A DNA stretch of 64,000 nucleotides from Peptococcaceae bacterium BICA1-7 (GTDB lineage Bacteria; Bacillota; Desulfotomaculia; Desulfotomaculales; Desulfocucumaceae), in contig JUEB01000029.1 in the NCBI GenBank assembly GCA_000802095.1, forward strand, positions 186,001-250,000, in the 5' to 3' direction. Shown one piece after another: positions 42,622 to 64,000 of the stretch. The notes under the pieces are model-generated. The model saw only the letters and a list, made by a program, of their open reading frames with translations, was not told where the DNA came from and ran no database searches. A program made the position numbers and the translations under genes. Numbering within the stretch: position 1 is the first letter of the stretch; each line of letters starts with the position of its first letter.

Positions 42622-42650
42622 TTGACTAAAATTAGATGGGTGTATATGAT
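42622..42650 (+). promoter_or_regulatory. Probable promoter of the trans-AT PKS/NRPS cluster
   Basis: TTGACT at 42622-42627 and TATGAT at 42645-42650 are spaced by 17 bp in an AT-rich region. The next gene begins 66 nt downstream. All genes to the end of the window follow with gaps under 50 bp, so one transcript is plausible. Confidence 0.7.
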
Positions 42651-42715
42651 CCTTTATATCAAATAATATATATAAATTAATATATTATATTAAAAATGCA
42701 AAATTGGGGTTATGT

Positions 42716-45700
42716 ATGCCAAAATCATTAGTTTTTATGTTCTCCGGCCAGGGTTCACAGTATTATCACATGGGCAGGGAGCTTTTCCAAAGACATCCTG
42801 TATTTCATGGTTGGATGATCAAGCTGGATGAAGAAGTGCGTAAAACTATCGGAAAGTCTGTTGTTGAGCGTCTATACAGTCCTGAGAAAACAATGGGTGA
42901 GAGGTTTGACAGACTATTATATACCAATCCTGCCATTTTCATGGTTGAGTTTTCACTGGCCCAGGTGCTGCTGGAAGAAGGGATAAAGCCTGATTATGTA
43001 CTGGGTACAAGCATGGGGGAAACAGTCTCTGCAGCCATCGCCGGTGTAATGGACGCTGGAGGTTTATTGAGATCAATATTAAAAAGTGCTGCTATTTATG
43101 AAGAAAACTGCCCAAGGGGAGGTATGCTTGCAATCATCCATGATATTGATCTTTTTTATGATACACCTCTTATAAACAGGAATAGCGAACTTGCCTCCAT
43201 CAACTATGACTCCCACTTTGTGGTTTCGGGGGATATCCAGGGCTTAAAGATGATAGAGGAATATTTGATGGACAGAAATATATTGTATCAGGATCTGCCG
43301 GTTGCCTTCGGCTTTCACTCATCTCAGATCGACCCCGCAGCAACTGCCCTTATACGTTACAAAAAAAACCTTACTTTTAAAAGACCTCATATTCCTTTTG
43401 TTTCCTGCCTACACGGGGATATTGCCGAGGAACTTGACAGCCGGTATTTTTGGGATGTTGTAAGAAAACCTATTCAGTTTCAAAGGGCCATTCAAAGGCT
43501 GGAAAGCCTTCAGGATAATTTTTACCTGGACCTGGGGCCATCGGGAACCCTAGCGGGCTTTGTGAAAAGAAACCTTTCCAGTGACTCAAAATCGGAAGCG
43601 CACAGCATAATGACTCCTTTTAATAGTAATTTAAAAAATCTTAATATAGCACTGGAAAAGTTATCCACTGAAAGACGGGTTAATATTCAGAGGAAGGTGA
43701 AAAAGATGATTGCTTATGTGTTTCCCGGCCAGGGGTCCCAGTATAAAGGGATGGGCGGGGATCTCTTTGGCCAATTTGAAGATTTGGCTGCAAAGGCGGA
43801 CAGAATACTTGGGTATTCATTAAGGGATCTATGCCTTAATGACCCTGACCGCCAGTTGAGTCAGACCCGCTATACTCAGCCGGCCTTATATACAGTCAAT
43901 GCCTTGAGTTATCTTAACAGGATTAAAGAGACGGGAAAAGCCCCGGACTATGTGGCCGGGCACAGCCTTGGGGAGTACAATGCCCTTTTTGCCGCAGGGG
44001 CTTATGATTTTGAAACTGGATTAAAGCTGGTAAAAAAAAGAGCTGAATTAATGAGCCGGGTTTCAGGCGGGGGCATGGCGGCGGTAATTGGCTTAAGTGG
44101 TGAAAGAGTTGAGGAGATACTGAAAAACTACGGGGAAAAAAGAGTGGAGATAGCAAACTACAATGCGCCCCACCAGATTGTGCTGGCCGGTTCCCTGGAT
44201 GATATCAGCCGGATAGGCAGTCTCTTTGAAAAGGAAGGAGCAAGGTATTTTCCCCTTAATGTAAGCGGCGCCTTCCACTCAAGTTATATGACGGACTTAA
44301 AGAGTGAATTCAGGGAGTACCTGGAACAGTTTGTCTTCTCTGACTTGACAATACCGGTGATCTCCAACGTAACCGCCAGGCCCTATAGACAGGAGGATGT
44401 AATAAGGAACCTGACTGATCAGATTAGCCGTCCTGTCAGGTGGACTGACAGTATAAGATACCTCATGGAGTGCGGGAAAATGGATTTTGAGGAAATAGGA
44501 CCGGGAAATGTCCTGGCCGGCCTTATTGGGCAGATTAAAAAAGATGCGGATGCCGGTGATAACCACAAAGACCTGAGGAGGGACAGCGGCAGTTCAACCG
44601 TGGAGGCTGCTTCATCCGGGATAGTAATACCGGAAGTAAGAATGGGTAGCGGCAACCATAAATTAAGTGCGGAAGCCCTTGGTGATAGTGACTTTAAAAG
44701 AGAATACAACCTTAAATACGCATACCTGGCAGGAGCCATGTACAGGGGGGTCAGCTCAAAAGAGCTGGTCGTAAGGATGGGGAAGGCCGGCATGATGGGC
44801 TTTTTCGGGACGGGCGGCCTTGGCATAGGGCAAATAGAAGAAGCCATAAGGGAAATCAAGGGTGAGCTGCGGGATGGACAGGCCTACGGTATGAATTTAC
44901 TGCATAACCCCGGCAATCCCCAGCTGGAGGAAGCACTGGTTGATTTGTTCTTAAGTCACGGAGTGAGATATGTTGAAGCATCGGCCTTTCTAGGCATAAC
45001 CCAGGCACTGGTGAAATACCGATCACACGGTTTAAGGAGGGACACCAATGGCCTAATTTGCGTATACAACAGAATTATTGCCAAGGTGTCCAGGCCTGAG
45101 ATAGCAGAGGCCTTTTTAAGGACGGCGCCCGAACGGATTGTGGAGAAACTTCTTTCTGATGGTGCTATTACCCGGGAACAGGCTGAAATGCTAAGAATAG
45201 TCCCGATGGCCGATGACCTGTGTGTAGAGGCCGACTCTGGAGGGCATACAGACGGCGGTGCGTCGTTTGTGCTTATACCAGCCATGATTAAATTGAGGGA
45301 TGAAAATGTAAAAAAATACAGGTATCCCAAAAAGGTAAGGGTGGGGGTGGCAGGAGGCATTGGCACTCCGGAAGCCGCAGCAGCCGCTTTTGTTATGGGT
45401 GCTGATTTTATTCTGACCGGATCAATAAATCAATGTACTGTTGAAGCGGGAAATAGCGATACGGTAAAGGATATGTTGCAGCAGATAAATGTTCAGGATA
45501 CGGACTATGCCCCGGCAGGAGATATGTTTGAACTGGGGGCCAGGGTACAGGTTTTAAAAAAAGGCGTTTTTTTCCCGGCCAGGGCCAACAAGTTAAGTAA
45601 TCTGTACCAGCAATATAGCTCGCTGGACCAAATAGATGAAAGCTCAAAAAAGCAGCTTCAGGAAAGGTACTTCCGGCGTAGTTTTGAGGAAATTTTTGAG

Positions 45701-46009
45701 GAATCGAAAATGTATTATTCACCACAGGAAATTGAAAAGGCCCAGCGCAATCCAAAGCTTAAAATGGCCATAGTTTTTAAATGGTATTTTGGCCACGCCA
45801 CAAGGCTGGCGATGAGCGGTGACCCGGACCGGCAGGTGGACTACCAGGTGCACTGCGGACCAGCCCTGGGAGCCTTTAACCAGTGGGTAAAGGGAACTCC
45901 CCTGGAAAACTGGAGAAATCGGCGCGTGGATGAGATTGGTATAAAGCTTATGACTGAAACAGCTTGTTTGTTGAACAGGCGGCTGGAGGAAATAAACAGT
46001 CCGGCATAA
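42716..46009 (+). CDS. Trans-acting acyltransferase/acyl hydrolase/enoyl reductase (AT-AT-ER)
   Basis: The 1097-residue protein joins three domains. AT1 (about 4-300) has FSGQGSQYYHMGREL and GTSMGE with Ser99, but Ser124 replaces the arginine that binds malonyl carboxylate, so it is probably the proofreading acyl hydrolase (PedC-like). AT2 (about 345-640) has VFPGQGSQYKGMG, AGHSLGE with Ser417 and VKKRAELM with Arg442, as in a malonyl transferase. The third domain (about 680-1097) is a PfaD-like flavin enoyl reductase (MGFFGTGGLGIGQIEEAI, GVAGGIGTPEAA). The order matches MmpC of the mupirocin system. AT2 would load the AT-less modules at 49644 onward. The ATG at 42716 is chosen over an upstream TTG at 42704. 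Confidence 0.92.
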   Translation: MPKSLVFMFSGQGSQYYHMGRELFQRHPVFHGWMIKLDEEVRKTIGKSVVERLYSPEKTMGERFDRLLYTNPAIFMVEFSLAQVLLEEGIKPDYVLGTSMGETVSAAIAGVMDAGGLLRSILKSAAIYEENCPRGGMLAIIHDIDLFYDTPLINRNSELASINYDSHFVVSGDIQGLKMIEEYLMDRNILYQDLPVAFGFHSSQIDPAATALIRYKKNLTFKRPHIPFVSCLHGDIAEELDSRYFWDVVRKPIQFQRAIQRLESLQDNFYLDLGPSGTLAGFVKRNLSSDSKSEAHSIMTPFNSNLKNLNIALEKLSTERRVNIQRKVKKMIAYVFPGQGSQYKGMGGDLFGQFEDLAAKADRILGYSLRDLCLNDPDRQLSQTRYTQPALYTVNALSYLNRIKETGKAPDYVAGHSLGEYNALFAAGAYDFETGLKLVKKRAELMSRVSGGGMAAVIGLSGERVEEILKNYGEKRVEIANYNAPHQIVLAGSLDDISRIGSLFEKEGARYFPLNVSGAFHSSYMTDLKSEFREYLEQFVFSDLTIPVISNVTARPYRQEDVIRNLTDQISRPVRWTDSIRYLMECGKMDFEEIGPGNVLAGLIGQIKKDADAGDNHKDLRRDSGSSTVEAASSGIVIPEVRMGSGNHKLSAEALGDSDFKREYNLKYAYLAGAMYRGVSSKELVVRMGKAGMMGFFGTGGLGIGQIEEAIREIKGELRDGQAYGMNLLHNPGNPQLEEALVDLFLSHGVRYVEASAFLGITQALVKYRSHGLRRDTNGLICVYNRIIAKVSRPEIAEAFLRTAPERIVEKLLSDGAITREQAEMLRIVPMADDLCVEADSGGHTDGGASFVLIPAMIKLRDENVKKYRYPKKVRVGVAGGIGTPEAAAAAFVMGADFILTGSINQCTVEAGNSDTVKDMLQQINVQDTDYAPAGDMFELGARVQVLKKGVFFPARANKLSNLYQQYSSLDQIDESSKKQLQERYFRRSFEEIFEESKMYYSPQEIEKAQRNPKLKMAIVFKWYFGHATRLAMSGDPDRQVDYQVHCGPALGAFNQWVKGTPLENWRNRRVDEIGIKLMTETACLLNRRLEEINSPA

Positions 46010-46051: not shown

Positions 46052-46303
46052 ATGTTAAAAGATTACATTTTTAAGATCTTAAAGGAGAATATAATTGAGA
46101 TTTTACCTGAAATGCCGGAGGAAAAAATTAGACTGGAAGAAAGCCTCAGGGAATTGGGAGCCAATTCGGTTGATCGCATGGATATAGTGGTCAAAACAAT
46201 GGAGGCCATAGGGATAAAAATATCTATGGTAGAAACCGCCCAGGCCGCAAATATAGGAGAACTGGTTGATTTATTTTATGAAAAAAAAAGATTAGCGGGT
46301 TGA
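46052..46303 (+). CDS. Stand-alone acyl carrier protein (beta-branching donor)
   Basis: The 83-residue carrier protein has the phosphopantetheine site in LGANSVDRMDI, with Ser at about residue 40. It lies directly before the KS decarboxylase and HMG synthase genes, the position of AcpK-type donors that carry the acetyl group added as a beta-branch. It shows DRMDIV rather than the DSL of modular ACPs. Confidence 0.88.
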   Translation: MLKDYIFKILKENIIEILPEMPEEKIRLEESLRELGANSVDRMDIVVKTMEAIGIKISMVETAQAANIGELVDLFYEKKRLAG

Positions 46304-47588: not shown

Positions 47589-48821
47589 ATGAATGTGGGT
47601 ATAGAAGCTATTAATTTCTACGGAGGGCCGGCCTATATCAGTGTGCGGGACCTTTTTCAAGCCAGGGGGCTTGATTTGGGGCGGTTCAATAATTTAATGA
47701 TGGACAAAAAATCAGTGGGAATGCCCTGCGAGGATCCTGTCACCAACGCGGTTAACGCTGCCAGGCCTATAATCGACAGGCTGACTGACAGTGAAAAAAA
47801 CAGTATAGATCTTGTTATAACTGCAAGCGAGTCGGGCTTGGATTTCGGCAAGTCTCTAAGCACCTACATCCATGATTACCTGGGGCTTAGCCGTAACAGC
47901 CGGCTATTTGAAGTAAAACAGGCATGTTATGGAGGAACGGCGGCCTTGCATATGGCTAGTTCCTATATTGCCTCCCAGGTATCTCCGGGGGCAAAGGCAC
48001 TGGTTGTTGCTACAGACGTTGCCCGGGCCGCCGCAAAAAACACTTACGCCGAGCCATCGCAGGCTGTAGGCGCGATAGCAATGCTGGTAAGCGACAGGCC
48101 CGAGGTTATGGAGTTGGACCTGGGAGCCAGCGGATATTACAGTTTTGAAGTAATGGACACCTTCCGGCCCATGCCGGAAATTGAAACGGGAGATCCCGAC
48201 TTATCCCTCCTCTCGTACCTGGATTGTTTGGATAACAGCTTTAAAGCATACGAGGAAAAGGTTGAAGGCGTTAATTTTATGCATACTTTTGATTTCCTGG
48301 CCTTCCATACCCCTTTTCCCGGAATGGTTAAGGGCGGGCACCGCAAAATGATGCGGGAACTGGCACGTATTAGCCCTGACCAAATAGAAGAGGACTTCAA
48401 TAGGAGGGTGGCCCCTTCTCTGGGGTATTGCACCCAGGTGGGAAATGTTTATTCTGCTACACTTTACCTGGCACTATGCGGTTTGATTGACCAGGCCGAC
48501 TTTGAAGATTTTAGCAGGGTGGGTTTGTTTTCATACGGCTCCGGCTGCTCGTCCGAATTCTACAGCGGAATACTGACTAAACATTCAAAAGCGGTGTTGA
48601 GCGAAATGATGATCGGAAAGAAGCTGGCCCAGCGATACCGGTTAGATATAGAGGAGTATGACAGGATACTGGATTTAAATATGGAGTGGATGTTCGGGAT
48701 AAAGGACAAAGAGGTGGAGCTATCAGGGTTCACGGAAATATATGAACAATTTTTTAAGGGACGCGGACTGCTCGTGTTAAACAGGGTAAAGAATTACCAC
48801 AGGGAATATTCGTGGAGTTAA
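47589..48821 (+). CDS. HMG-CoA synthase homologue for beta-branching (PksG type)
   Basis: The 410-residue enzyme has the HMGS nucleophile in EVKQACYGGTAALHM (Cys113), the general base region LVITASESGLDFGKS and the His block FLAFHTPFPGMVKGGH. In trans-AT clusters it adds the acetyl group from the donor ACP to a beta-keto intermediate on a module ACP. AT- or mevalonate-pathway genes are absent nearby, so a PKS role is favoured over isoprenoid synthesis. Confidence 0.92.
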   Translation: MNVGIEAINFYGGPAYISVRDLFQARGLDLGRFNNLMMDKKSVGMPCEDPVTNAVNAARPIIDRLTDSEKNSIDLVITASESGLDFGKSLSTYIHDYLGLSRNSRLFEVKQACYGGTAALHMASSYIASQVSPGAKALVVATDVARAAAKNTYAEPSQAVGAIAMLVSDRPEVMELDLGASGYYSFEVMDTFRPMPEIETGDPDLSLLSYLDCLDNSFKAYEEKVEGVNFMHTFDFLAFHTPFPGMVKGGHRKMMRELARISPDQIEEDFNRRVAPSLGYCTQVGNVYSATLYLALCGLIDQADFEDFSRVGLFSYGSGCSSEFYSGILTKHSKAVLSEMMIGKKLAQRYRLDIEEYDRILDLNMEWMFGIKDKEVELSGFTEIYEQFFKGRGLLVLNRVKNYHREYSWS

Positions 48822-48839: not shown

Positions 48840-49610
48840 ATGCGTAATGAAACCATTTTGGTAAAGGAAGCCCGGGGCATACTGACAGTGACTTTCAACC
48901 GGCCTAAAAGCAAGAACAGCATCAACGGGGCTTTTTTGCGCGAACTCAACGATGCGCTGGACCTGTCATTAAGAAATTCGGAGTGCCGCATGGTGGTTTT
49001 GGAAGGACAGAATGGAGTATTCAGCACAGGGATGGATTTTAACGATAGGGCTTCCGGAAATTATGATGAAAAATTGGACAGGCTGTCTCTGGTCAGATAT
49101 ATGGAGATGTTAAAGAGATTCAGAGAGATACCCAGGATTGTGATTTCCATTGTGGACGGGCAGGTTATTGCGGGAGGGGTTGGGCTGGTGGCGGCCAGCG
49201 ATCTGGTAATTGCGACGCCACGCGCCCGGTTTGGCCTTTCGGAGGCGCTTTGGGGAATGCTGCCCGGAATGCTGCTGCCTTTTCTCATCCGCAGGGTGGG
49301 GTTCCAAAAGGCCTATAGCATGACACTGACCACCATGCCGGTGTCTGCAGTGGAAGCGCATAGCTTTAACCTTGTCGATGAGGTGACCGAAACGCCCGAT
49401 CAAACCATACTTCAGCTAACCCAAAGGTTAATAAGGCTGGAGGAGTCAACCATAGAAAACATTAAACAGTTTTTCTTAAAACTATGGCCCATAACCGGTG
49501 AATTTGAAGAAATGGCTGTTGCCGAAAGCTTCAGGCTGATGAATGACCCAAAGGTCAGGGAGAACATTGATAATTTTGTAAGGTATAAGAAGTTCCCCTG
49601 GAATAAATAA
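48840..49610 (+). CDS. Enoyl-CoA hydratase-like dehydratase, ECH1 type (PksH)
   Basis: The 256-residue crotonase-fold protein has NRPKSKNSINGAFLREL, the oxyanion loop FSTGMDF and IVDGQVIAGGVGLVAASD. FxTGMDF is typical of ECH1, which dehydrates the HMG-like adduct. ECH2 decarboxylases usually read GGTQEGLL at that region, which is not found here or elsewhere in the window. It follows HMGS by 18 bp; GTGGGAG precedes its ATG. Confidence 0.85.
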   Translation: MRNETILVKEARGILTVTFNRPKSKNSINGAFLRELNDALDLSLRNSECRMVVLEGQNGVFSTGMDFNDRASGNYDEKLDRLSLVRYMEMLKRFREIPRIVISIVDGQVIAGGVGLVAASDLVIATPRARFGLSEALWGMLPGMLLPFLIRRVGFQKAYSMTLTTMPVSAVEAHSFNLVDEVTETPDQTILQLTQRLIRLEESTIENIKQFFLKLWPITGEFEEMAVAESFRLMNDPKVRENIDNFVRYKKFPWNK

Positions 49611-49643: not shown

Positions 49644-52600
49644 ATGACCAGTCGCTGCGCAGACATTGCGGTTATAGGAATGGGTTGCCGGTTTCCCGGC
49701 GCCGATGACTACCGGCAATTTTGGAGCAATCTGGAGCAAGGGATAAATTCTATCAGGGAAATTACTCCGGAACGGTGGGAAATTGATGGGTTTTACTCCC
49801 CTGATATAAACGTGCCCAACAGGAGTATCAGTAAGTGGTGCGGGCTCCTTGACGGAATTGACCGGTTTGACAGCCGTTTTTTCAACATCTCTCCCCGTGA
49901 GGCCGGTAATATGGACCCACAGCAAAGGCTTTTGCTGGAAGAAACCTGGCGCTGCATTGAGGACTCCGGTATTTCCCTGAACAATCTCCAAAATAAAAAT
50001 ACCTCAGTCTATGTGGGTGTAATGACAGGTGACTACCGCCAGGAGTGGGCGTCTATTGGCACTGAAACAGACAGTTACGCCTGCCTGGGAAATGTGGAGA
50101 GCATACTTGCAAATAGAATTTCCCACACCTTTAACCTTAAGGGATCCAGCATCTCCATAAATGCCGCCTGCGCCTCCTCCCTGGTGGCGGTTCACCAGGC
50201 GAAGCGCTCGCTGGTGTCCGGAGAGTGTGATTATGCCCTGGCGGGTGGAGTTAATTTAAACCTCCATCCCTGGAAATATATTTCCTTTTCCAAATCAAGA
50301 ATGCTAAGCCCAGACGGCCAGTGTAAAACCTTTGACAGGGACGCCAACGGCTATGTTCCCGGAGACGGTGTGGGAGTTCTCCTTCTGCAGAGGCTGGATG
50401 ACGCCATTGCTGAAGGCAGCCATGTTTACGGCATAATCAAGGGTTCGGCAGTCAACCACTGCGGAAAATCACTGTCCATCACCGCTCCAAGAGTCGAGTC
50501 CCAGAGGGATGTGATACTAAAAGCATACGGCGAGGCCGGGTTTAGCCCCGAAACAGTCACCTACGTGGAGGCTCACGGAACAGGAACATCCCTTGGAGAT
50601 CCTATAGAAATAGAAGCGCTGACCCGGGCTTTCAGGAAATACACAGGCAAGAGCCAGTATTGCAGGATAGGGTCGGTTAAAACAAATATCGGTCACCTGG
50701 AGTCGTCTGCCGGGGTAGCCGGGATAATAAAGGTCCTGTTAATGATGCGGCACAAAAAAGTTCCTCCCACGTTAAACATGAAAGAGCAAAATCCAATAAT
50801 AGATTTTAAGGCGACCCCCTTTGAGACAGCCGAGAGTCTAACGGACTGGAAGGCAGAAAGAGAGGGTATTCCTTTGCGGGCAGGGGTGAGCTCCTTCGGT
50901 TTTGGAGGAGTTAATTGCCATATTTTACTGGAAGAATACCCTGCCGGGAAGACAAAAAAGGAACACACCGGTGATCCTTTTAATCTGTTTACTTTATCCG
51001 CCAAAAGTCCGGAAAGTTTGAAAGAAATGATCAGGGAGTGGGATTTGTATACCGGGAGCAAGGAGTTTTCAGAGTATGACATTAGGGACATCTGCCAGAC
51101 TCTCCTTACCGGAAGAGAACATTTTTCATTCCGCTATGGCGTTATGATCAGGGATAAAGAAGAGCTAAAAAAAGCTTTGCAGGAGGAATTTGTTTTAGCG
51201 GCGGCAGAGGAAGGTAAAAAGAAGAGGTGTTTGAGGATAGGGGATCTTTTATCTCCGGGCAGCCGGGAGATAAAGCGGCTGATCTCAAAACTGCCCCCAT
51301 TAAAGAAAAGCTTTGATTTAATATTGGACAAAGTGTCCAATAAGAGCAAAACCAGTGATTTGTCAGATTTTTTAAAAGCGCTTTCCCCGCAGGAAATATC
51401 CTTCTTGTTTACTTACGCCCTTGCCGCCACCTGTGTGGACCTGGGGTTTAGCCCGGAATTAGTGGCCGGAGAAGGTACGGGGATATGGGTAAGCCTGGCC
51501 GTATGCGGCATTATCCGTCCGGAGGATGTACTGCCTGTTATTAAAGGAAATTTGCCGGTGGACAATATCAAACTTTCCCGGCCATCCATACCATTTTTTG
51601 ATCCTGTCAACAGGACAGTTATAATGCCATATTTAATTGGCGGGGATTATATTAATAATTTAATAAAACAGGTTAGCTCAGTTAATGATGAAACTGCCCT
51701 TGTATATATAGAAAAGGCAATTAAACTGTTTAACAGCCAGTTTACCTTTAAAAATTATTTGGGTGAATGGGATAAACCGCTTAAAGACTCTGGGTTAAAC
51801 ACAGAAAGCCTGCTTTTTGATGAGAGGATACTGGATGACCGGCCAGAGAATGGGAAAAAGCTTATTTTAATTGTAGCGATATTAAGCGCTTTAAGAAAAC
51901 TCAACTCGAGGTGGAACTTGACTGATTCGAGGCCGGAGGGCAACCATTGGCTTGATGAGATGGCGGACCTGCTGAATGATGATGTTTTGCCCAAAGAAGT
52001 GGCTGTTAAACTCCTTCTTGATAAAACTGTTGATCCAAATCATGTGGCGGGTATTATTAATGGGCGGCAACACCGGCTGGACTCTCAAAAGCCCTACCTC
52101 CATATTAAAGACCATAATATCTATTTGCAGGAACTAAACCATTTTGGAACATGGGTGAAAGATGCCTTATCAGCAGGCTGTGAGGTTGGTGATAAGGAGT
52201 CATTTTTGTTTCTTGAAATAGGGAAAAGAGCCTGTCCGGATTGCATGGGAGTTTGCATGGACATAGGAAAGGCTGCCGGCTTTGAGGGGATTTTCAAGGA
52301 ATCCTTTCTAAAGCTGTGGCTAAAGGGAATTGATGTGCGGTGGGACAGGCTGTATTCCGGCATCGGATACAGTAAAGCTGCTCTTCCGGTTTATCCCTTT
52401 AGCAGGGAATCACACTGGGTGCAGCGGCCTTCAAGCGGGCCTGTTGTTCAGGGGCGGCATCCCCTGATACACAGAAACGGTTCAACTTTAAATGAGCAGA
52501 TGTATTCCATAACTCTCTCAGGGAATGAATTTTATCTGACGGACCATAAAGTGGGAAACCTTAAAACACTACCGGGCGCAGTATACCTGGAGATGGCCCT

Positions 52601-55600: not shown

Positions 55601-58600
55601 CACGAAAACAGGGGTTTTCGTGGGGGTGGCTTTTAATGATTACCAGGAGTTGCTGCAGGGCTCTTCCGCCCGGATTGAGGCTCACACTTCTACAGGTACC
55701 GCCAGTTCCATATTGGCTAACAGAATATCCTATATTTTAAATCTCCGGGGGCCCAGTGAGCCGGTGGATACAGCTTGTTCCAGCTCCCTTGTGGCCATTC
55801 ACAGGGGAATTGAGGCCATAAGGAATGGCTGCTGCGAGATGGTGATAGCCGGGGGAGTCAATGTCATACTAAGCCCCTGGGTGTATATATCGTTCAACAA
55901 GGCGGGGATGCTCTCCCCGGATGGCAGGTGCAAAAGCTTTGACCACCGCGCCGACGGATATGTAAGGGGAGAAGGTGTGGGGGCGGTGCTTCTCAAGCCT
56001 CTTAGCCGGGCTGTGGCCGACGGTGATTATATTTACGGGGTAATCAGGGGATCTGCAATAAACCACGGCGGGCGGGCGAACTCTATGACAGCTCCCAATC
56101 CCAATGCCCAGGCGGAGCTGTTAATAGATGCTTATAGGGGCGCAGGTGTGGATTTCAATACAATTAGCTATATAGAGTGTCACGGAACGGGCACCAGGCT
56201 GGGTGACCCTGTTGAGATCAATGGACTGAAAAAGGCCTTTAATGAATTAAGCAGCAGAAATAGCCAAGTTATCAAGTCCTGTGGACTGGGGTCGGTTAAA
56301 TCCAATGTAGGGCACCTGGAGGCCGCCGCCGGTATCGCAGGGCTGTTCAAAGTGCTGCTCTCACTAAAATATGGAAAAATTCCGGCCAGCATCAACTTTG
56401 AGAAGTTGAACCCCTTCATTGATTTAGAGGATACCCCCTTTTATATAGTCGAAAAAACCAGGCCCTGGGAGAGGATGAAAGGTCAGGATGGGCGTGACCT
56501 ACCCAGGCGGGCGGGGATTAGTTCCTTTGGCTTCGGGGGGGTTAATGCCCATTTGATAATAGAGGAATGTCACGGTCAGACATATTCCGGGGAGGCCCAA
56601 TATCCGGGCCAGCACTTAATACTGCTTTCTGCAAAAAGTGAAGAGGCGCTGAATCGTTATGCCGCTGAGCTGCTTGGTACTTTTGATAGAAAGACAATAG
56701 GCGCAGCTTTGGAGCTTTCCAATATTGCATACACCCTCCAGGTGGGGAGGGTTGCCATGAGCGAGAGGCTGGCGGTGGTTGTTTCAAGTGCGGAACAACT
56801 GAGGGAAAAGCTGGAATTGTACTGCCGGGGAAATTTAATGGTGGAAAACCTCTTCACCGGAAGCGCAAGAGGAGCCTCCCTCGGCATGAGGCTGCTTGTT
56901 GAGGGGAGAGCCGGAAAAGAGTTTATAAAAGCTGTAATTAATGACAGGGAGCTCTCAAAGCTGGGGCAGCTGTGGGTATCAGGCATTGATATCGACTGGA
57001 GCCTTTTATATTCAGAGCTAAAGCCCAGGCGTGTTCCCCTGCCCACCTACCCCTTTGCAGGTGAGCGGCACTGGGTAAATCCTTCACTTAAAAGCGGGCC
57101 GCTGCTGGATTGCCGTGAGGATGGCCCCCGAAACCTGCCGGAGGACTTTTCTCAGTTGTTTTATTCGCCCGCCTGGAGGCACGAACCCCTGACGGTAAAT
57201 GGTACAGATTCAGTTAGCCCGGTAGGAAGAGTAAATGGCAAAAAAGTACTTGTGATCCGCCCTCCTGACTGCCTGGGATTGGACAGGGCGCTGGAGGATG
57301 TGCATGTGGGGGATAAAGTATTTAATGTAATACTGGGTAGTAAGACAGCAAAACTATCTGAGAAAAGCTGGGAGGTTAATGCTGAAGACCCTCATTCTCT
57401 TGACAGTGTCCTAAGTCAGCTGGAAGGTATTGGTAAGATATATTTTTTGGGCGGAATAAATAACAACCAGATAGACACCGATGATATCAGGTCACTGGAT
57501 CAAATCCAGGAGTTGGGTGTTGTTTCATTATTCAGGCTGATTAAATCGCTAAGCCGGAACAGGTTAATTGATGGGACCATCATTATAAAAGTAGTAACCG
57601 GCAATGTTCATCAGGTTTTTCCGGAGGATCTGACAAATCCTTATTCAGCGGGACTTATTGGTTTGGCCGGAGCTATAGCCAGGGAATATCCCCAGCTGCT
57701 GGTGAGCTGCATTGATATCGATCTGGACCCGGTAAGCCTGTCCGGACAGGGGATACGAGGCATTTTGGAGTATATTGCCGCTGAGCCCTGGCATCCTGAG
57801 GCCAGGGCAGTGGCATATCGCGGCGGAAGACGCTATGTCAGTATTATTGAGCCGGTAATGCTCACTCCCGCTGAGAAACTTCCTTTCAGGAGGAGGGGCG
57901 TCTATTTCATATTGGGGGGAACCGGGGGTATTGGACTGGAGGTAAGCAGCCATCTGGCCGAAACGGTGCAGGCAAGGCTGGTGCTCGTAGGCCGGAGCGA
58001 ACTGACCAGGGACAAAAAGGAAAAAATACTGGCCATAGAAGCAAGGGGCGGCAAAGTGCTTTACATAAAGGCCGATGCTGCCGACCCCGGCAGTATGAGA
58101 GTTGCCGTCCAGAGAGCAAAGTCGGAGTTTGGCCGCATCGACGGGGTAATTCACTCGGCAATGGTGGCTAAAGACGGCATCCTTGAAAATATAAGCGAGA
58201 GTGATTTTACAGCCGGGCTCTCGCCCAAAATAAGAGGCAGTGTTGTTCTGAGCAATGCTTTCAAAAATGAGCCGCTTGATTTTATGCTGTTCTTTTCTTC
58301 GGTTGCGGCTTTTTCAGGAAGCATTAATTATGGAGCAAGCAATTATGCAGCGGGAATAACCTTCAAGGACGCCTTTGCCCGCTCTATTAACAATAAAGCC
58401 CCTTATCCGGTAAAAGTAATTAACTGGGGGTATCTCGGAAATATAGGCTCCGGAGCCAAGGCCGGGCTGGAAAGAATGTTTTTAAGCAGGGGGGTAAATC
58501 CCGTTACGGTCAGTGAGGGCATGGAGAGCATAAGCAGGGTTCTGGGGAACAGTATTTTTCAGGTGCTTGTAATTAAAGCACAAGAACGTTTCCTTCAAAA

Positions 58601-61600
58601 CCTGGGCGCCAGACTGGATTATAAAAAAATAATATGCTCCAAAACTGTTCCTTCCGTGACTGGATCATCATTGCGCCGGGCTTTGCCCCTTTTGTCTGAA
58701 GCAGATTCCCTGTGTGGCAGTAAGACCGGTTTTAAAGACCTTGACTGGTATGCACGGTGTCTTATATTGGACAGCTTTCAAAGGATGGGTGTTTTCATAC
58801 ACACGGGTGAAAAATATGAAAAAAGCCGCTTTAAAGAGGATTTGAAAATAAGGTCTCAATACAACAGGCTCTTTGAGTGCCTGATGGATATTTTTGAAGA
58901 ATCGGGATTTATTGAAATAAAGGATAATCACATAATTACCGCCGGGGGTATAGACAGGGAAGAAACAAAAGAGGCGCTTCAAAACAAGGACAGCTTCAGG
59001 GAGCTTCTGCTGCGAAAATTTCCGGAACTGGAGCCCTTTATTAATGTTTTGCGGGTATGTGGCGGCGCGTACGGCGAGATTATTACCGGCCGGGCGCTTG
59101 CGACGGACGTGCTGTTTCCCGGATCTTCCATGGAATTAATGGAAGGGGTTTATAAGGGCAATCTGTTTTCCGGCTTTTTTAACCGTCTGGCTGCAGCCGG
59201 CATCCGGTCGTATGTCGAGGAAAGGATACCCCTGCTGCAAGAGGGTGAAAAAATAAAGATTCTTGAGGTGGGGGCGGGCACGGGCGGAACCAGCGATCCG
59301 GTTCTGGAAGCCTTAAAGCCATTTGAAGACCGGATACTCTATTCATATACAGACGTTTCCCAGGCGTTCACAAGGCATGGTAAGAAGATGTACGGGCCAA
59401 GGTATCCCTTTGTGGAGTTTGGGTTGATGGACATTGAAAGGGATGTTACTGCTCAGGGATATGACCCCGGTGACTACGACGTTATTATCGGGGCCAACGT
59501 TATTCACGCCACAAAAAGGCTGAGGAATACTCTGCAGAACTTAAAGCTGCTGCTCAAAACAAACGGCTGGCTGGTGCTGAACGAAGCAACCGGGACACCG
59601 GCATGGGCTACCATAATTTTCGGACTTCTGGATGGCTGGTGGCTTTATGAGGACGAAGAACGTTTAAAGGGCGGCCCTCTGCTTGGCCTGGAGACGTGGA
59701 AAACGGTTCTCCGGGAAGAGGGATTCAGAAATATTGTGGCGCTGGGTGCTCAAAAGACAGTTAGCGGGGAACTTCCCCAGCATATCATTGTTGCCGAGTG
59801 TGACGGCGCACCCAAAGCAGCTATAGAGATTGGTAATGACACAGGTGGATCACCGGAAAAGAATGACCCGGCAGATTCTGGTGACCCGGGAGCTGGCCAT
59901 ACAGCGCCGCCATCTGCCGGATCGGAGAAAGATAATTTGCCGCCTGACCAAAATCAATTGCAAAAAGTGGAGGGAAAAATAGTAAAGGTAGCTGCCGGGG
60001 TTTTACAGCTTGATGAAAATTTGATAGACCCTGAAGTACCATACTCGGATTTTGGTGTGGATTCCATATTTGCAGCGGAAATAGTAAGCCGTGTAAATAA
60101 TTTATTTCCTGTGAAGGTTAAAACGGCTGACTTTCTCAGCCACAGCACATTACGCTCCTTTGCGGGGTTTATAGCCGGCAGGTCAGGAGCGGGAGATGGC
60201 GTTATAAGTGGCGGAGGTCTGTTGAACAGTGAGGGGCGGACTCCCTCAGCGCCCATATCCCGTAGCCCTATGGCGCAGCCGGCAGGGAATGGGGCGGGCA
60301 ACCCGCCGTATGGCGGGCCTGTGGCTATTGTAGGAATGAGCGGGGCAATGCCCGGATCGGACAGCCTGGAGTCTTTTTGGCAGGGGCTGATGGAAGGAAA
60401 GTCTTTTATCTCGGAGATACCAGCTGAGAGGTGGAGTTGGAAATATTATTACGGCGACCCTGTAAGTGAAACAAATAAAACAGATTCCATATGGGGCGGG
60501 TTTTTAAAAGATGTTAAAAGGTTTGACGCGATGTTCTTCGGCATTTCACCGAGAGAAGCCAGGCTGATGGACCCGCAGCACAGAATTTTGCTGGAAACAG
60601 TCTGGAAGACCGTCGAGGACGCAGGCTACAGGGCTTCTGACCTGGCGGGAACAAAAACGGGGGTATTTGTCGGGGTTGGAACTGCTGATTATGCTGAACT
60701 AATGCGGACGGGCGGCATTCCGGCAGATCCTGTGGCGATGATTGGTCTATCGCCCTCCATGCTGGCTAACCGGATTTCACACTACTATGATTTCCGGGGG
60801 CCCAGTGAGTCTATAGACACCACTTGCTCGGGATCCGCCGTGGCTGTGCACCGGGCGGTAAACGCAATAAGGAGCGGTGAGTGCGAAATGGCCATAGCCG
60901 GTGGAGTCAGCCTTGTTTTATCGCCAACTGGCCAGATATCGCTGAGCAAGGCGGGAATATTGAGCAGAAGCGGTACTGTCAGACCGTTTGATAAAAAGGC
61001 CGACGGGTTTATCCGGGGAGAGGGGGCGGGCGCTGTCCTGCTTAAGCCTCTTGCCAGGGCTGAGGAAGACGGGGACCACATTTATGCGGTAATTAAAGGA
61101 AGCGCGGTAAACCACGGGGGCAGGAATAATGTTTCCCTGGTCTCTCCCAGCGCAGAAGCCCAGTCCGGAGCCATAATGGCGGCATATAAAAGCGGGGGGA
61201 TTGAGCCGGGAACTGTAAATTACATCGAGTCCCACGGCACCGGCTCAGTATACGGAGATAATGCGGAACTGGGGGCGTATCAGGAGGCTTTTAAAATAAT
61301 GAATGGCCATCCGGGTAGCAGGGAGCAGTTGCCGGGCCATTGCGGTATTGGGTCGTATAAGCCCAATGTGGGCCACCTCGAGGCAGCTTCCGGGGTTTGC
61401 GCGATCATAAAAGTTGTTTTTGCCTTGAGGGATAAAGTGCTGCCCGCTACCTTAAATTTTGAACAAGTTCATCAGGATATCGACTTGAGTGGCGGGCCGT
61501 ATTTTATTGTTGACAGGACAATGGAGTGGGAACCCCTTAAGCGTAGTGATGGGAGGGTTGTTCCCAGAAGAGCGGGCATTCATTCCTTTGGCTTTGGGGG

Positions 61601-62645
61601 GACTAATGTTCACATTGTGCTGGAGGAGTACCTTGCCGGGACCCAGCCGCCAGGAATCCCCAGCGGGATTCAGGGTCCGCAAGTACTGGTCTTTTCAGCA
61701 AAAACCGGCGAGGCGCTGCGAAAGCACCTTGAAAATATGATTGATTTTTTTAAAAAGGCCGGGGGAGTCAGGCTGCAGGATGTGGCTTATACCCTTCAGG
61801 CGGGCCGGGAAGCCATGGAAGAAAGGCTGGCCATAGTGGTCAATAGTATGAAAGAGGCCGTAGATGCCCTGGGCAGTGTGCTGAACAACAAAATACCGGA
61901 AAACTCATACAGGGGAAGAGTAAAGCCAAATGCCGGAGTTATACAGGAAGCTTCGGATACAGACAGTATGTGGAATAAGGGCAGTCCGGCCATTCTGGCC
62001 AGCCGGTGGGTCCACGGGGCGGATGTAGATTGGAGTAGCCTGGGAGGCAGCGGGATTTGTAAAAGGATTCCCCTCCCCACCTATCCCTTTGCCGGTGAAA
62101 GATATTGGTTTGACCAGATCTGGCTCAACGGAGAGCACATCGCTCAAACATCAGCCGATCAATCCGGCTTAACTGAAGCAACGCTTGCTAATGGCTGTCA
62201 CCCGGACGGGCAAATTAAACGGCAGCTTAAAAAGATGATAAGCCGGTTGCTGGAAATGCCGGAGGATGAGATAGATACCGGAGAAAACCTGAAAAAATAC
62301 GGCTTTGATTCACTCATGGCAGTTAAACTGTCAAACCGGATCAGTGAGATATACGGCAAAACAATATCTCTGAAGAACATATTGATGAATCTGACGGTTG
62401 TGGACCTGTCCCGGTTAATGAGCTTTAACTCAGGAGCATTGACGGGTCTGGAGTCCGGGCCGGGGGCGGGCGTAAGTGTGGCCGATACCGGTGTGACCGG
62501 CTGTGAAATCACTCAAGGTGTTAAAGGTATGGAGGATAAACTCTACCAGTTTATTATCGACGAGCTTGTTGCCGGAAGGATAACACCCGGAAAGGCGGCA
62601 GAACTTGCGGGAAATTTAAGGAAATCCGGATGGAGTGGGAACTGA
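49644..62645 (+). CDS. Three-module trans-AT polyketide synthase (4333 aa)
   Basis: The ATG follows GGGGAGG. Domain order: KS1 about 6-432 (Cys176 in NAACASSL); a degenerate AT-like region about 440-925; DH about 937-1216 (His968, Asp1138); KR1 about 1235-1720 (GGAGGLG, Tyr1632, Asn1636); ACP1 (Ser1786); KS2 about 1875-2310 (Cys2045); KR2 about 2400-2990 (GGTGGIG, Tyr2901, but Ile2905 where Asn is expected); C-methyltransferase about 3050-3370 (ILEVGAGTGGTS); ACP2 (Ser3474); KS3 about 3559-3996 (Cys3728); ACP3 (Ser4223); and a C-terminal helical tail from 4295. All three KS keep both histidines. Module 1 would give a double bond, module 2 an alpha-methyl unit, and module 3 a beta-keto unit. 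There is no functional cis-AT, no loading module and no release domain. The TGA overlaps the NRPS ATG by one base. Confidence 0.95.
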   Translation: MTSRCADIAVIGMGCRFPGADDYRQFWSNLEQGINSIREITPERWEIDGFYSPDINVPNRSISKWCGLLDGIDRFDSRFFNISPREAGNMDPQQRLLLEETWRCIEDSGISLNNLQNKNTSVYVGVMTGDYRQEWASIGTETDSYACLGNVESILANRISHTFNLKGSSISINAACASSLVAVHQAKRSLVSGECDYALAGGVNLNLHPWKYISFSKSRMLSPDGQCKTFDRDANGYVPGDGVGVLLLQRLDDAIAEGSHVYGIIKGSAVNHCGKSLSITAPRVESQRDVILKAYGEAGFSPETVTYVEAHGTGTSLGDPIEIEALTRAFRKYTGKSQYCRIGSVKTNIGHLESSAGVAGIIKVLLMMRHKKVPPTLNMKEQNPIIDFKATPFETAESLTDWKAEREGIPLRAGVSSFGFGGVNCHILLEEYPAGKTKKEHTGDPFNLFTLSAKSPESLKEMIREWDLYTGSKEFSEYDIRDICQTLLTGREHFSFRYGVMIRDKEELKKALQEEFVLAAAEEGKKKRCLRIGDLLSPGSREIKRLISKLPPLKKSFDLILDKVSNKSKTSDLSDFLKALSPQEISFLFTYALAATCVDLGFSPELVAGEGTGIWVSLAVCGIIRPEDVLPVIKGNLPVDNIKLSRPSIPFFDPVNRTVIMPYLIGGDYINNLIKQVSSVNDETALVYIEKAIKLFNSQFTFKNYLGEWDKPLKDSGLNTESLLFDERILDDRPENGKKLILIVAILSALRKLNSRWNLTDSRPEGNHWLDEMADLLNDDVLPKEVAVKLLLDKTVDPNHVAGIINGRQHRLDSQKPYLHIKDHNIYLQELNHFGTWVKDALSAGCEVGDKESFLFLEIGKRACPDCMGVCMDIGKAAGFEGIFKESFLKLWLKGIDVRWDRLYSGIGYSKAALPVYPFSRESHWVQRPSSGPVVQGRHPLIHRNGSTLNEQMYSITLSGNEFYLTDHKVGNLKTLPGAVYLEMALASGIMAKEKKACIIKNMAWTRPLTLALEREAARDVFIGLYPGGDAVDCRIWTLAEGCTRVTHAQGKVVFEDSGADSPPGFINIQALRKRCPDSLMHTDCYGLLRNRGFDYGPSFQAVREFFSCESEGLSRLELPAELKSSFTGFLLHPSLVDGAFQTAVLHIARSGKQGRYLPFSLGEVHMAESLPEECYAQVIRKEMKSGGAVSFDIFVADVSGRVLVKMLDFTMRESGGTFALKEHRSNNLLYTFQDKEENTEPFSDQPSGRVFFQHNWVKTDLGTVYGSSLSGNFLIFDINHETAGGLENILRKSGGLHNIALVKPGLSFGIAGDGVYEIRPGNQDDALRLIEELNSRDFFAEKIVYLCPQNIPPGSNDIKAQTGWGIHSLFPFIKAHLGQRIQKQTTLLYIYPAYEDEVRASHAAVSGFAKSIMLENPKFKCKTIEIKGGESGGAGLPDVILREFQPESLGLEIRYHNGQRLVKQFEEFELNHLPGGSKLLRDKGVYLITGGAGGLGMIFAKYLAGRVKARLVLAGRSPVTDDIKRRIKELEVHGAEVMYIETDVARLNDVKTLVEKARAHWGGIDGIIHCAGVIRDSYLFNKTVEDFEAVLAPKVFGTIYLDEATQKEKLDFFVLFSSFSSVMGNLGQCDYAYANCFMDHFAEERNRRALQGDRAGKTLSINWPLWLDGGMTVDDHARKFMFNTMGISALNSDSGLDVFEKGLAFQGSQLVAVEGNLDRIKSFLNVGQCVGGCNDEGGTSKSEDPGGKDLKEFQKQLLKMAGLILGVKEGSVDLDGDMKEFGFDSFSYTDFANKINESYGLDITPAVFFEHTSIRTFTSYLWNDYNETLARFFPPEEVEIMDVRSEKTLFKAAQSDQYFEKTVQSDERRACPEDPVAIIGIDGIMPGSENLEVFWRYIEEGRDLISEIPGVRWDWKNYYGDPDQEGNKTNVKWGGFMKEVARFDASFFGISPREADLMDPRQRLLLESVWKAIEDAGYKASDLSGTKTGVFVGVAFNDYQELLQGSSARIEAHTSTGTASSILANRISYILNLRGPSEPVDTACSSSLVAIHRGIEAIRNGCCEMVIAGGVNVILSPWVYISFNKAGMLSPDGRCKSFDHRADGYVRGEGVGAVLLKPLSRAVADGDYIYGVIRGSAINHGGRANSMTAPNPNAQAELLIDAYRGAGVDFNTISYIECHGTGTRLGDPVEINGLKKAFNELSSRNSQVIKSCGLGSVKSNVGHLEAAAGIAGLFKVLLSLKYGKIPASINFEKLNPFIDLEDTPFYIVEKTRPWERMKGQDGRDLPRRAGISSFGFGGVNAHLIIEECHGQTYSGEAQYPGQHLILLSAKSEEALNRYAAELLGTFDRKTIGAALELSNIAYTLQVGRVAMSERLAVVVSSAEQLREKLELYCRGNLMVENLFTGSARGASLGMRLLVEGRAGKEFIKAVINDRELSKLGQLWVSGIDIDWSLLYSELKPRRVPLPTYPFAGERHWVNPSLKSGPLLDCREDGPRNLPEDFSQLFYSPAWRHEPLTVNGTDSVSPVGRVNGKKVLVIRPPDCLGLDRALEDVHVGDKVFNVILGSKTAKLSEKSWEVNAEDPHSLDSVLSQLEGIGKIYFLGGINNNQIDTDDIRSLDQIQELGVVSLFRLIKSLSRNRLIDGTIIIKVVTGNVHQVFPEDLTNPYSAGLIGLAGAIAREYPQLLVSCIDIDLDPVSLSGQGIRGILEYIAAEPWHPEARAVAYRGGRRYVSIIEPVMLTPAEKLPFRRRGVYFILGGTGGIGLEVSSHLAETVQARLVLVGRSELTRDKKEKILAIEARGGKVLYIKADAADPGSMRVAVQRAKSEFGRIDGVIHSAMVAKDGILENISESDFTAGLSPKIRGSVVLSNAFKNEPLDFMLFFSSVAAFSGSINYGASNYAAGITFKDAFARSINNKAPYPVKVINWGYLGNIGSGAKAGLERMFLSRGVNPVTVSEGMESISRVLGNSIFQVLVIKAQERFLQNLGARLDYKKIICSKTVPSVTGSSLRRALPLLSEADSLCGSKTGFKDLDWYARCLILDSFQRMGVFIHTGEKYEKSRFKEDLKIRSQYNRLFECLMDIFEESGFIEIKDNHIITAGGIDREETKEALQNKDSFRELLLRKFPELEPFINVLRVCGGAYGEIITGRALATDVLFPGSSMELMEGVYKGNLFSGFFNRLAAAGIRSYVEERIPLLQEGEKIKILEVGAGTGGTSDPVLEALKPFEDRILYSYTDVSQAFTRHGKKMYGPRYPFVEFGLMDIERDVTAQGYDPGDYDVIIGANVIHATKRLRNTLQNLKLLLKTNGWLVLNEATGTPAWATIIFGLLDGWWLYEDEERLKGGPLLGLETWKTVLREEGFRNIVALGAQKTVSGELPQHIIVAECDGAPKAAIEIGNDTGGSPEKNDPADSGDPGAGHTAPPSAGSEKDNLPPDQNQLQKVEGKIVKVAAGVLQLDENLIDPEVPYSDFGVDSIFAAEIVSRVNNLFPVKVKTADFLSHSTLRSFAGFIAGRSGAGDGVISGGGLLNSEGRTPSAPISRSPMAQPAGNGAGNPPYGGPVAIVGMSGAMPGSDSLESFWQGLMEGKSFISEIPAERWSWKYYYGDPVSETNKTDSIWGGFLKDVKRFDAMFFGISPREARLMDPQHRILLETVWKTVEDAGYRASDLAGTKTGVFVGVGTADYAELMRTGGIPADPVAMIGLSPSMLANRISHYYDFRGPSESIDTTCSGSAVAVHRAVNAIRSGECEMAIAGGVSLVLSPTGQISLSKAGILSRSGTVRPFDKKADGFIRGEGAGAVLLKPLARAEEDGDHIYAVIKGSAVNHGGRNNVSLVSPSAEAQSGAIMAAYKSGGIEPGTVNYIESHGTGSVYGDNAELGAYQEAFKIMNGHPGSREQLPGHCGIGSYKPNVGHLEAASGVCAIIKVVFALRDKVLPATLNFEQVHQDIDLSGGPYFIVDRTMEWEPLKRSDGRVVPRRAGIHSFGFGGTNVHIVLEEYLAGTQPPGIPSGIQGPQVLVFSAKTGEALRKHLENMIDFFKKAGGVRLQDVAYTLQAGREAMEERLAIVVNSMKEAVDALGSVLNNKIPENSYRGRVKPNAGVIQEASDTDSMWNKGSPAILASRWVHGADVDWSSLGGSGICKRIPLPTYPFAGERYWFDQIWLNGEHIAQTSADQSGLTEATLANGCHPDGQIKRQLKKMISRLLEMPEDEIDTGENLKKYGFDSLMAVKLSNRISEIYGKTISLKNILMNLTVVDLSRLMSFNSGALTGLESGPGAGVSVADTGVTGCEITQGVKGMEDKLYQFIIDELVAGRITPGKAAELAGNLRKSGWSGN
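51415..52430 (+). other. Degenerate acyltransferase-like region inside PKS module 1
   Basis: Codons for about residues 591-929 show AT-like order. LAATCVDLGFSPELVAG is followed by EGTGIW where active ATs have HSxGE (residues 610-613), then CGIIRPEDVLPVI. The end LEIGKRACPDC and LPVYPFSRESHWV resembles the AT C-terminus and post-AT linker. The nucleophile serine and the histidine before it are gone, so it is not catalytic. Confidence 0.6.
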
Positions 62646-64000
62646 TGATGAGAATTAGCGAGGAAAAAATATTCCAGGAAATTGCTGAGAATAGAATAAC
62701 CAAGGAACAGGCGCTAAAGCTTCTAAAAGGCATAAGCGCCGGGGTTTCCGGGGAAAGCTTTCCCCTGTCCGAGGGGCAAAAGCTGCTCTGGGTGTTTAGC
62801 CGTTTGGCCCCGGAGAGTTATGCTTACAATGTTCCCCAGGCCTTCAGGGTAAGAAATGACATCGACACCGCCGCGCTGAAAGAAGCAGTCCGGCTTTTAA
62901 TTGAACGGCATCCTTCACTGCGGGCGGTTTTCCGGCTGGAAGGAGATAATCCGGTTCAGGAAACGATAGAAAACCCGGAGGTTTGTTTTATTCTCAAGGA
63001 TCTGTCCCTCTTTTCCGGACCTGCCATAGAAAATGAAATTAAGGCTGCCTCCAGGGAGCCCTTTGATCTGGAAAAAGGGCCTCTCTTCAAAACCTATCTT
63101 TTTACCCTGCCGGGTAAAGAAATGGTTTTGCTGCTGGTTTTTCACCATATTGTGGTTGATGGCACTTCCATTCAAATTATACTTGACGAACTCCAGAGGT
63201 ATTACAATGCCTTAAAGGGCGGGGAAAGCTATAAACCTACCCTGCAAAGGGCCACTTACCAGGATTTTGTATGCTGGCAGGAGGATATGCTCGAAGGCGA
63301 GAGAGGCCATAAGGATCTCCAATTCTGGAGAAATCAGCTTTTAGGTGAGATAAATCCTGTTGACCTGTACTTTGATAAAACCCCCCCGGCTTTGCCCACG
63401 TACAGAGGGGAGAGCCATTTTATCAGGATTGGCAGTCCTCTGGCGGGGGAGATAAAATTGCTGTCTGTCCGTGAGGAAACAACGGTTTTTTCGGTTTTAC
63501 TGTCCGCCTTCAAGGTGCTTCTTTATCGTTACAGCAGCCAGGAGGACATTTATGTGGTAACCCCGGTGGCGGGCAGGCCAGAAACAAGGTTTGAAGAGAT
63601 AGTGGGGAATTTTGTTAATCTGGTGGTCATAAGGAGCCATCTTTCGGGTGATAAAGAATTTAGGACGCTATTAAAGGAAATAGGGGAGACAGCGATCAAC
63701 GCCCTTGATCACGGCAATTACCCCTTTGGCAGAATTACCGGTGAACTGGGGAAAAAGCATAAAAAAACTGCCCCTCAGCTTTTCAGAACAGCATTTTATT
63801 TGCAAAACTGGAAAAAGAGAACTACTGGAAACCTCTTCCAAAAGAAGGATGGTTTTATTCTGGAGCCCTACGGGGAAATTACCCAGGAGGGGGAATTCGA
63901 CCTGACACTGGATGTTTTCCCGGTGGAGGAAGGTTACAGGCTGTGTTTTAAATATAACCCCGACCTTTTTGAAGAGAGGACAATTGTCAACATGGCCGGG
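62645..64000 (+). CDS. Non-ribosomal peptide synthetase, N-terminal condensation domain (cut by window end)
   Basis: The frame is open for 452 codons to the window edge. After a short helical start (EEKIFQEIAENRITKEQALK), a condensation domain begins at about residue 38 with FPLSEGQKLLWVF. The catalytic motif is HHIVVDGTS, with the second His and the Asp intact. Later blocks are TYQDFVCWQ, TPVAGRP and VGNFVNLVVI. It would join an amino acid to the chain carried by ACP3 of the upstream PKS. Adenylation and carrier domains should lie beyond 64000. The start may be the ATG at 62645 or 62648. Confidence 0.92.
   Translation, partial: MMRISEEKIFQEIAENRITKEQALKLLKGISAGVSGESFPLSEGQKLLWVFSRLAPESYAYNVPQAFRVRNDIDTAALKEAVRLLIERHPSLRAVFRLEGDNPVQETIENPEVCFILKDLSLFSGPAIENEIKAASREPFDLEKGPLFKTYLFTLPGKEMVLLLVFHHIVVDGTSIQIILDELQRYYNALKGGESYKPTLQRATYQDFVCWQEDMLEGERGHKDLQFWRNQLLGEINPVDLYFDKTPPALPTYRGESHFIRIGSPLAGEIKLLSVREETTVFSVLLSAFKVLLYRYSSQEDIYVVTPVAGRPETRFEEIVGNFVNLVVIRSHLSGDKEFRTLLKEIGETAINALDHGNYPFGRITGELGKKHKKTAPQLFRTAFYLQNWKKRTTGNLFQKKDGFILEPYGEITQEGEFDLTLDVFPVEEGYRLCFKYNPDLFEERTIVNMAG

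What the first reader, a model, noticed from the sequence alone, without database searches (positions are those of the whole stretch)
42622..64000. Trans-AT polyketide/peptide cluster in an apparently strict anaerobe
An AT-AT-ER enzyme, a beta-branching set, a 13-kb AT-less PKS gene and an NRPS start together form a biosynthetic cluster beside ordinary amino-acid genes. The gene context suggests a Desulfotomaculum-like anaerobe; such clusters are best known from Bacillus, Pseudomonas and symbionts. The combination of modules (KS-DH-KR, KS-KR-MT, KS only, then a condensation domain) does not match a pathway I recognise, so the product may be new.
Basis: partly seen in the sequence, partly recalled or inferred. 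Interest (0 to 1): 0.78.

Follow-up and report, generated by a model that had tools for sequence, protein, structure and literature searches.

The report
Trans-AT polyketide cluster in sulfate reducer
A strictly anaerobic, sulfate-reducing bacterium carries an intact, roughly 90-kb set of genes for building an unidentified antibiotic-like molecule (a polyketide joined to amino acids), a type of cluster already known from other anaerobes but found in only two of 113 genomes of its class.

Summary
From about 42.7 kb the window holds an intact trans-AT PKS/NRPS cluster: a fused AT-AT-enoyl reductase, a beta-branching set (donor ACP, KS without active-site Cys, HMG synthase, ECH), a 13.0-kb AT-less PKS gene and the start of an NRPS/PKS gene. 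The window cuts it. On the same contig it runs 25.6 kb further and stops at a contig end caused by near-identical module repeats. Contig overlaps extend it over four more contigs (C30, C19, C3, C17) to an inferred ~91 kb with 16 KS domains; the order of two pieces is open. The genome has dsrA, no heme-copper oxidase and a second, 52-kb trans-AT cluster. Predicted features: Gly at the first NRPS module, a beta-branch at module 8, an Asn module ending in a C domain. Trans-AT clusters in strict anaerobes have been published since 2012, so this is a new member of a known kind; in this class only two of 113 genomes have a trans-AT acyltransferase set. The product is unidentified. Two oddities: a degenerate AT after KS1, shared with distant clusters, and serine-less ACP-like inserts in two KS linkers, also found in four other genera.

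The parts
42704..46009 (+). Discrete acyltransferase protein AT1-AT2-ER (PfaD type). AT1 carries GTSMGE, AT2 GHSLGE; probably starts at the ATG at 42716 rather than the TTG at 42704
   Evidence: Pfam Acyl_transf_1 twice, TIGR02814 pfaD 690 bits; motifs read
46052..46303 (+). Donor acyl carrier protein of the beta-branching set
   Evidence: PF00550; NF005502 above cut-off; 58% identical to the ACP of the beta-branching set in L030
46311..47588 (+). Decarboxylating ketosynthase of the beta-branching set (no active-site Cys; GGSSASG at that place)
   Evidence: NF005490 510 bits; sequence; 64% to L030 homologue
47589..48821 (+). HMG-CoA-synthase-like beta-branching enzyme
   Evidence: PF08540, PF01154; 73% to L030 homologue
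48840..49610 (+). Enoyl-CoA hydratase ECH1 (dehydration step of beta-branching)
   Evidence: PF00378; best NCBIfam NF005498
49644..62645 (+). AT-less PKS protein 1, 4333 aa, modules 1-3
49662..50939 (+). KS1 (Cys, HGTGT, KTNIGH present)
   Evidence: clade of first-module KS with support 100
51204..52418 (+). Degenerate AT-like region, GEGTG where an active AT has GHSxG
   Evidence: profile-profile match to AT domains, probability 93, E 3.4e-7; reversed control 0.1
52458..53282 (+). DH of module 1
   Evidence: PF21089, PF14765
53463..54644 (+). KR of module 1 (structural and catalytic halves)
   Evidence: PF21394, PF08659
54915..55055 (+). ACP of module 1
   Evidence: Ser present
55269..56570 (+). 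KS2
57336..58400 (+). KR of module 2
59229..59753 (+). C-methyltransferase of module 2
   Evidence: PF08242
59979..60107 (+). ACP of module 2
60318..61631 (+). KS3 (Cys, HGTGS, KPNVGH present)
62226..62366 (+). ACP of module 3
62630..64000 (+). Start of NRPS/PKS protein 2 (3446 aa, ends at C29:258970): condensation domain with HHIVVDG, then A (Gly-like), PCP, KS4-KR-ACP, KS5-DH beyond the window

Best explanation
An intact trans-AT PKS/NRPS assembly line of an obligately anaerobic, sulfate-reducing member of the Desulfotomaculum lineage. The free AT1-AT2-ER protein loads malonyl units onto modules that have no AT of their own (AT2 probably the loader; AT1, with an altered GTSMGE motif, may be a hydrolase) and supplies enoyl reduction in trans. 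Protein 1 builds a triketide (DH-KR, KR-MT, plain keto). Protein 2 adds an amino acid, probably glycine, and extends. Protein 3 adds further modules, and at module 8 (KS8-ECH-ACP-ACP) the donor ACP, Cys-less KS, HMG synthase and ECH1 of the window, with ECH2 built into protein 3, put a one-carbon branch on the beta position. The line then continues over repeat-rich DH-KR modules and reaches a C-A(Asn)-PCP-C protein whose last C domain probably releases the chain. Shown: gene content, intact frames, domain order, motifs, contig overlaps. Inferred: substrate choices, module order downstream of C29:275619, release step, product class. Starter unit and product are unknown.
For: Domain scans of all proteins; catalytic motifs; complete beta-branching set including an integrated ECH and tandem ACPs; exact or 98-100% overlaps joining contigs; AsnA next to the Asn-coded module; PanP-like decarboxylase in addition to a normal PanD elsewhere; KS tree in which KS1 falls with first-module KS of six other clusters; dsrA and no COX1.
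Against: No expression, metabolite or knock-out data. KS clades could not be tied to substrates without an annotated reference set. The part after C29:275619 rests on repeats: two orders of C3 and C30 fit equally well. The A-domain codes were read by hand from motif anchors, not by a trained predictor.
Confidence: 0.85

Rival explanations
1. The cluster makes a product already known from another bacterium, with a rearranged gene order.
For: KS1 with its dead AT and the nearby AT-AT-ER form a block shared with clusters of Streptomyces, Actinophytocola, Phytohabitans and an unnamed Bacillota MAG, 39-40% over 940-1240 aa for those measured; module blocks are shared with a cluster in relative G006.
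Against: Downstream of the first module the compared loci differ in module order; none of them is a characterised pathway that I could name.
Confidence: 0.2
2. Non-functional or decaying cluster.
For: Contig ends inside KS genes; two ACP-like domains and one DH-like domain lack catalytic residues.
Against: All frames are open over 47 kb on C29; the contig ends are explained by repeats; dead ACP inserts of the same kind occur in other PKS genes; an inactive DH homologue (possible double-bond shift domain) is common in such lines (own knowledge).
Confidence: 0.07
3. The two trans-AT clusters of this genome (C29... and C24-C6-C9) share acyltransferases or cooperate on one molecule.
For: Both include a C-A(Asn)-PCP-C protein with similar domain build and both have HMGS and ECH; a PPTase was seen only beside cluster 2.
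Against: Each has its own AT pair and lies on different contigs; near-identical repeats were seen within, not between, the two sets.
Confidence: 0.15
4. Mis-binned or foreign contig, so the host is not the anaerobe.
For: Cluster G+C 49.6% against 52.3% upstream; C19 41.6%; no close copy in two congeners.
Against: The same contig carries nuo, leuS, ffh, lepB and the only ilvC of the genome; relative G006 of the same family has homologous AT and ER genes, 56 and 66%.
Confidence: 0.03

Closest known systems
Trans-AT PKS/NRPS clusters of strict anaerobes in Clostridium (C. cellulolyticum CcelA with 16 KS, C. papyrosolvens), PMC3250452
   Same: AT-less modular PKS joined to NRPS modules in strictly anaerobic Bacillota; similar size
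   Different: Host is a dsr-bearing sulfate reducer of another lineage; sequence relation to those clusters not tested here
Trans-AT clusters of gut anaerobe MAGs (Ruminococcus, Blautia, Lachnospiraceae), PMC7930024
   Same: 13/14-module trans-AT lines in anaerobes
   Different: Module make-up not compared
Clusters at L023, L024, L045 (Streptomyces), L043 (Phytohabitans flavus), L058 (Actinophytocola), L050 (Bacillota MAG)
   Same: AT-AT-ER protein near a PKS gene that begins KS-dead AT-(DH)-KR; KS1 clade support 100
   Different: Later modules differ; L050 has no beta-branching genes between AT and PKS but an ABC exporter
Beta-branching (HCS) cassette, e.g. the one beside AT-AT-ER in Candidatus Parabeggiatoa L030
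   Same: ACP, Cys-less KS, HMGS, ECH in the same gene set, 57-73% identical
   Different: Here the second ECH is a domain of PKS protein 3 instead of a free protein (L030 has two free ECH)
Cluster of relative G006, contig C71 (same family)
   Same: AT, AT, ER 56-66% identical to the window protein; KS pairs grouping with KS of C3 and of cluster 2
   Different: Separate AT, AT and ER genes; different module series

Membership tests
Trans-AT polyketide synthase | Multimodular PKS whose modules lack an integrated functional AT | tested here: met
   No AT hit in PKS proteins 1-3; the only AT-like region lacks GHSxG
Trans-AT polyketide synthase | Free-standing AT gene(s) in the cluster | tested here: met
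   AT1-AT2-ER at 42704-46009
Trans-AT polyketide synthase | KS domains followed by the trans-AT type linker | tested here: met
   PF22336 RhiE-like linker and PF22621 above cut-off after KS domains
Trans-AT polyketide synthase | The free AT loads the module ACPs | not testable with these tools
   needs enzyme assays
Beta-branching (HCS) cassette | Donor ACP, decarboxylating KS without Cys, HMGS, two ECH | tested here: met
   46052-49610 plus ECH domain in protein 3 at about C29:271020-271730
Beta-branching (HCS) cassette | Acceptor module with tandem ACPs | tested here: met
   KS8-ECH-ACP-ACP, both with DS
Hybrid PKS/NRPS | C-A-PCP modules in line with KS modules | tested here: met
   Protein 2 C-A-PCP-KS
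Any characterised trans-AT pathway | Matching series of KS clades and modules | not tested
   No annotated reference clusters (MIBiG, transATor) on hand; tree used unannotated loci only
Strict anaerobe / sulfate reducer (host) | dsrAB present, no heme-copper oxidase | tested here: met
   dsrA model over its cut-off with a second, weaker hit beside it that I take for dsrB; COX1 absent; cytochrome bd oxidase not tested

The most novel reading that the evidence does not exclude
The serine-less ACP-like domain set between the two helices of the KS linker (flanking subdomain) in modules 4 and 7 is an unnamed structural part of trans-AT lines, derived from an ACP and kept without its phosphopantetheine serine in at least five genera, perhaps for contacts between neighbouring modules; and this cluster makes a new product class of sulfate-reducing Bacillota.
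Probability: 0.3. Interest if true: 0.55.

Novelty: new member of a known kind. Interest (0 to 1): 0.42.

Why it matters
Very little is known of the natural products of sulfate reducers. This genome holds two intact-looking trans-AT lines with predictable features (Gly, Asn, a Ser-coded cyclisation module in the second, beta-branches), which makes a targeted search for the compounds feasible. The kilobase-long, 96-100% identical module repeats suggest that the lines grew recently by duplication or gene conversion, which is useful for the study of how trans-AT lines evolve.

Tried and rejected
1) ACP-like inserts in KS linkers as unique to this cluster: rejected, the same insert without serine is in B. 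velezensis, Klebsiella grimontii, Paenibacillus sonchi and Sinorhizobium medicae plasmids. On the KS tree the insert needs six changes, no better than shuffled labels, so it does not mark one KS clade. 2) The insert as the published LINKS motif: considered, not settled. Solved KS chains that I recall as the LINKS structures match only outside the insert; my text on LINKS comes second-hand. 3) ilvC next to the cluster as starter-unit gene: rejected, single copy. 4) KS3 as a non-elongating KS: a first regular-expression scan missed the second His; the sequence shows KPNVGH. 5) Finding the organism's name: the one scan of named genomes did not return it. 6) Cluster end at 275619: rejected, it is a repeat break. 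8) Paper searches combining trans-AT with Desulfotomaculum or sulfate-reducing gave no such cluster; absence from an open-access library is weak evidence.

Full report
WHAT IS THERE. The finding is correct in substance. From 42704 the window carries, in one direction and in open frames, AT1-AT2-ER (1101 aa), a small ACP, a KS without active-site Cys, an HMG-synthase-like protein, an enoyl-CoA hydratase, a 4333-aa AT-less PKS protein and the first 457 aa of a 3446-aa NRPS/PKS protein. Upstream genes are ordinary: a nuo operon, leuS, ffh and lepB, which I named from the sequence, and glutamate dehydrogenase and ilvC. ilvC is the only copy in the genome, so the left border lies between 42281 and 42704.

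HOST. The window is G000:C29:186001-250000 of a 4.75-Mb, 33-contig assembly. dsrA is present well over its cut-off and no heme-copper oxidase was found, whereas the same search rings in 8 of 14 control genomes. Together with the nuo operon this supports a strictly anaerobic sulfate reducer of the Desulfotomaculum lineage. The species name could not be established: the scan of named genomes did not return it.

BEYOND THE WINDOW. On C29 the cluster continues to the contig end at 275619: protein 2 (to 258970), protein 3 (259010-272752, 4580 aa), a PLP-dependent decarboxylase (272776-274434) and the start of another PKS gene. The contig ends inside a KS that is 98-100% identical to KS sequences at the ends of C19 and C30. 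Overlaps of 885-1039 bp at about 99.8-99.9% join C29 to C30, C19 to C30, C30 to C19 and C30 to C17; C3 matches C30 exactly over 1032 bp at its start and 649 bp at its end. The simplest reading is C29, then (C30 or C3), then C19, then (C3 or C30), then C17, whose PKS gene stops at 364860 and is followed by convergent genes outside the PKS frame. That path is about 90.9 kb and, counted, holds 16 KS domains besides the decarboxylating one. It is an inference from overlaps, and the order of C30 and C3 is open.

ASSEMBLY LINE (domain calls, motifs). Protein 1: KS1-dead AT-DH-KR-ACP; KS2-KR-MT-ACP; KS3-ACP. Protein 2: C-A-PCP; KS4-(dead ACP insert)-KR-ACP; KS5-DH. Protein 3: DH-like without catalytic Asp-ACP; KS6-KR-ACP; KS7-(dead ACP insert)-DH-KR-ACP; KS8-ECH-ACP-ACP. 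Then the KS9 gene with DH-KR modules. C19 adds DH-KR-ACP, then C-A-PCP-C, AsnA and a MATE transporter. The A-domain pocket letters read by hand are DPVQLGVVWK (resembles Gly codes) in protein 2 and DLTKIGEVGK (resembles Asn codes) in C19. AsnA is a clear asnA equivalog. The decarboxylase resembles PanP (574 bits, just under the 606 cut-off) and the genome also has a regular PanD, so a dedicated aspartate-derived amine, beta-alanine, is a plausible building block; this is a guess.

BETA-BRANCH. Donor ACP, Cys-less KS, HMGS and ECH1 are in the window; ECH2 is a domain of protein 3, next to tandem ACPs, both with the serine. All parts needed for branching at module 8 are therefore present.

SECOND CLUSTER. 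C24, C6 and C9 join by exact overlaps of 323 and 339 bp to about 52 kb: separate AT and AT, a NusG-like protein, hydrolase, B12 radical SAM protein, AMP ligase, methyltransferase, KS modules, two C-family domains with a DxxxxD-like motif (cyclisation type), an A domain with the Ser code DVWHFSLVDK (read by hand), two nitroreductase-type oxidase domains, a second HMGS and ECH, again a C-A(Asn)-PCP-C protein, MFS exporter and PPTase.

COMPARISON. KS1 forms a fully supported clade with first-module KS of six loci, all near an AT-AT-ER gene. The region after KS1 is a degenerate AT: profile-profile probability 93 at the active-site stretch, 0.1 for the reversed control. In the host's class, 2 of 113 genomes have an AT-AT pair of this type, the host and G006 of the same family; two congeners lack it. 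Two further genomes have only an ER-type match. Trans-AT clusters in strict anaerobes are not new: Clostridium (PMC3250452) and gut MAGs (PMC7930024).

ODDITY. Two KS linkers contain an ACP-like domain that passes the Pfam cut-off but has Lys or His at the place of the phosphopantetheine serine. Inserts of the same kind, also without Ser, occur in four plasmid-borne PKS genes, one of them a B. velezensis cluster beside pdhA that I take for macrolactin from memory. Among 107 KS hits in the 60 fetched loci and the G006/G027 stretches none was seen, but 48 of these had no recognisable linker motif. I found no paper on it.

VERDICT. Real, intact as far as can be read, and functional by all sequence signs; new member of a known kind with an unidentified product.

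Noticed in passing
G000 C24:226196-255216, C6, C9:306156-319593: Second trans-AT cluster of about 52 kb with a Ser-coded cyclisation/oxidase module, B12 radical SAM protein, its own HMGS/ECH, PPTase and MFS exporter.
   Followed up: partly
C29:253556-253753 and 265673-265864 (beyond the window): ACP-like domains without the phosphopantetheine serine inserted in the linkers of KS4 and KS7; the same kind of insert in L100-L103 from four other genera.
   Followed up: partly
51204-52418: Degenerate AT-like region after KS1, also in L023, L024, L043, L045, L050 and L058.
   Followed up: yes
C29 end, C30, C19, C3, C17 end; C24 end, C6, C9 end: Kilobase-long 96-100% identical module repeats within each cluster, which broke the assembly and suggest recent duplication or gene conversion.
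   Followed up: partly
C29:272776-274434: PanP-like aspartate decarboxylase inside the cluster although a regular PanD exists on C12.
   Followed up: partly
L095-L096 (G006:C71): Relative of the same family has another trans-AT cluster with separate AT, AT and ER genes and a PKS frame of more than 6600 aa that includes a KS-ACP-C-C stretch like that of cluster 2.
   Followed up: partly
L021, L028, L030, L053, L055, L056: AT-ER or AT-AT-ER genes of this type in MAGs of Parabeggiatoa, Thiotrichaceae, Anammoxibacter, Spirochaetales and Thiomargarita.
   Followed up: no
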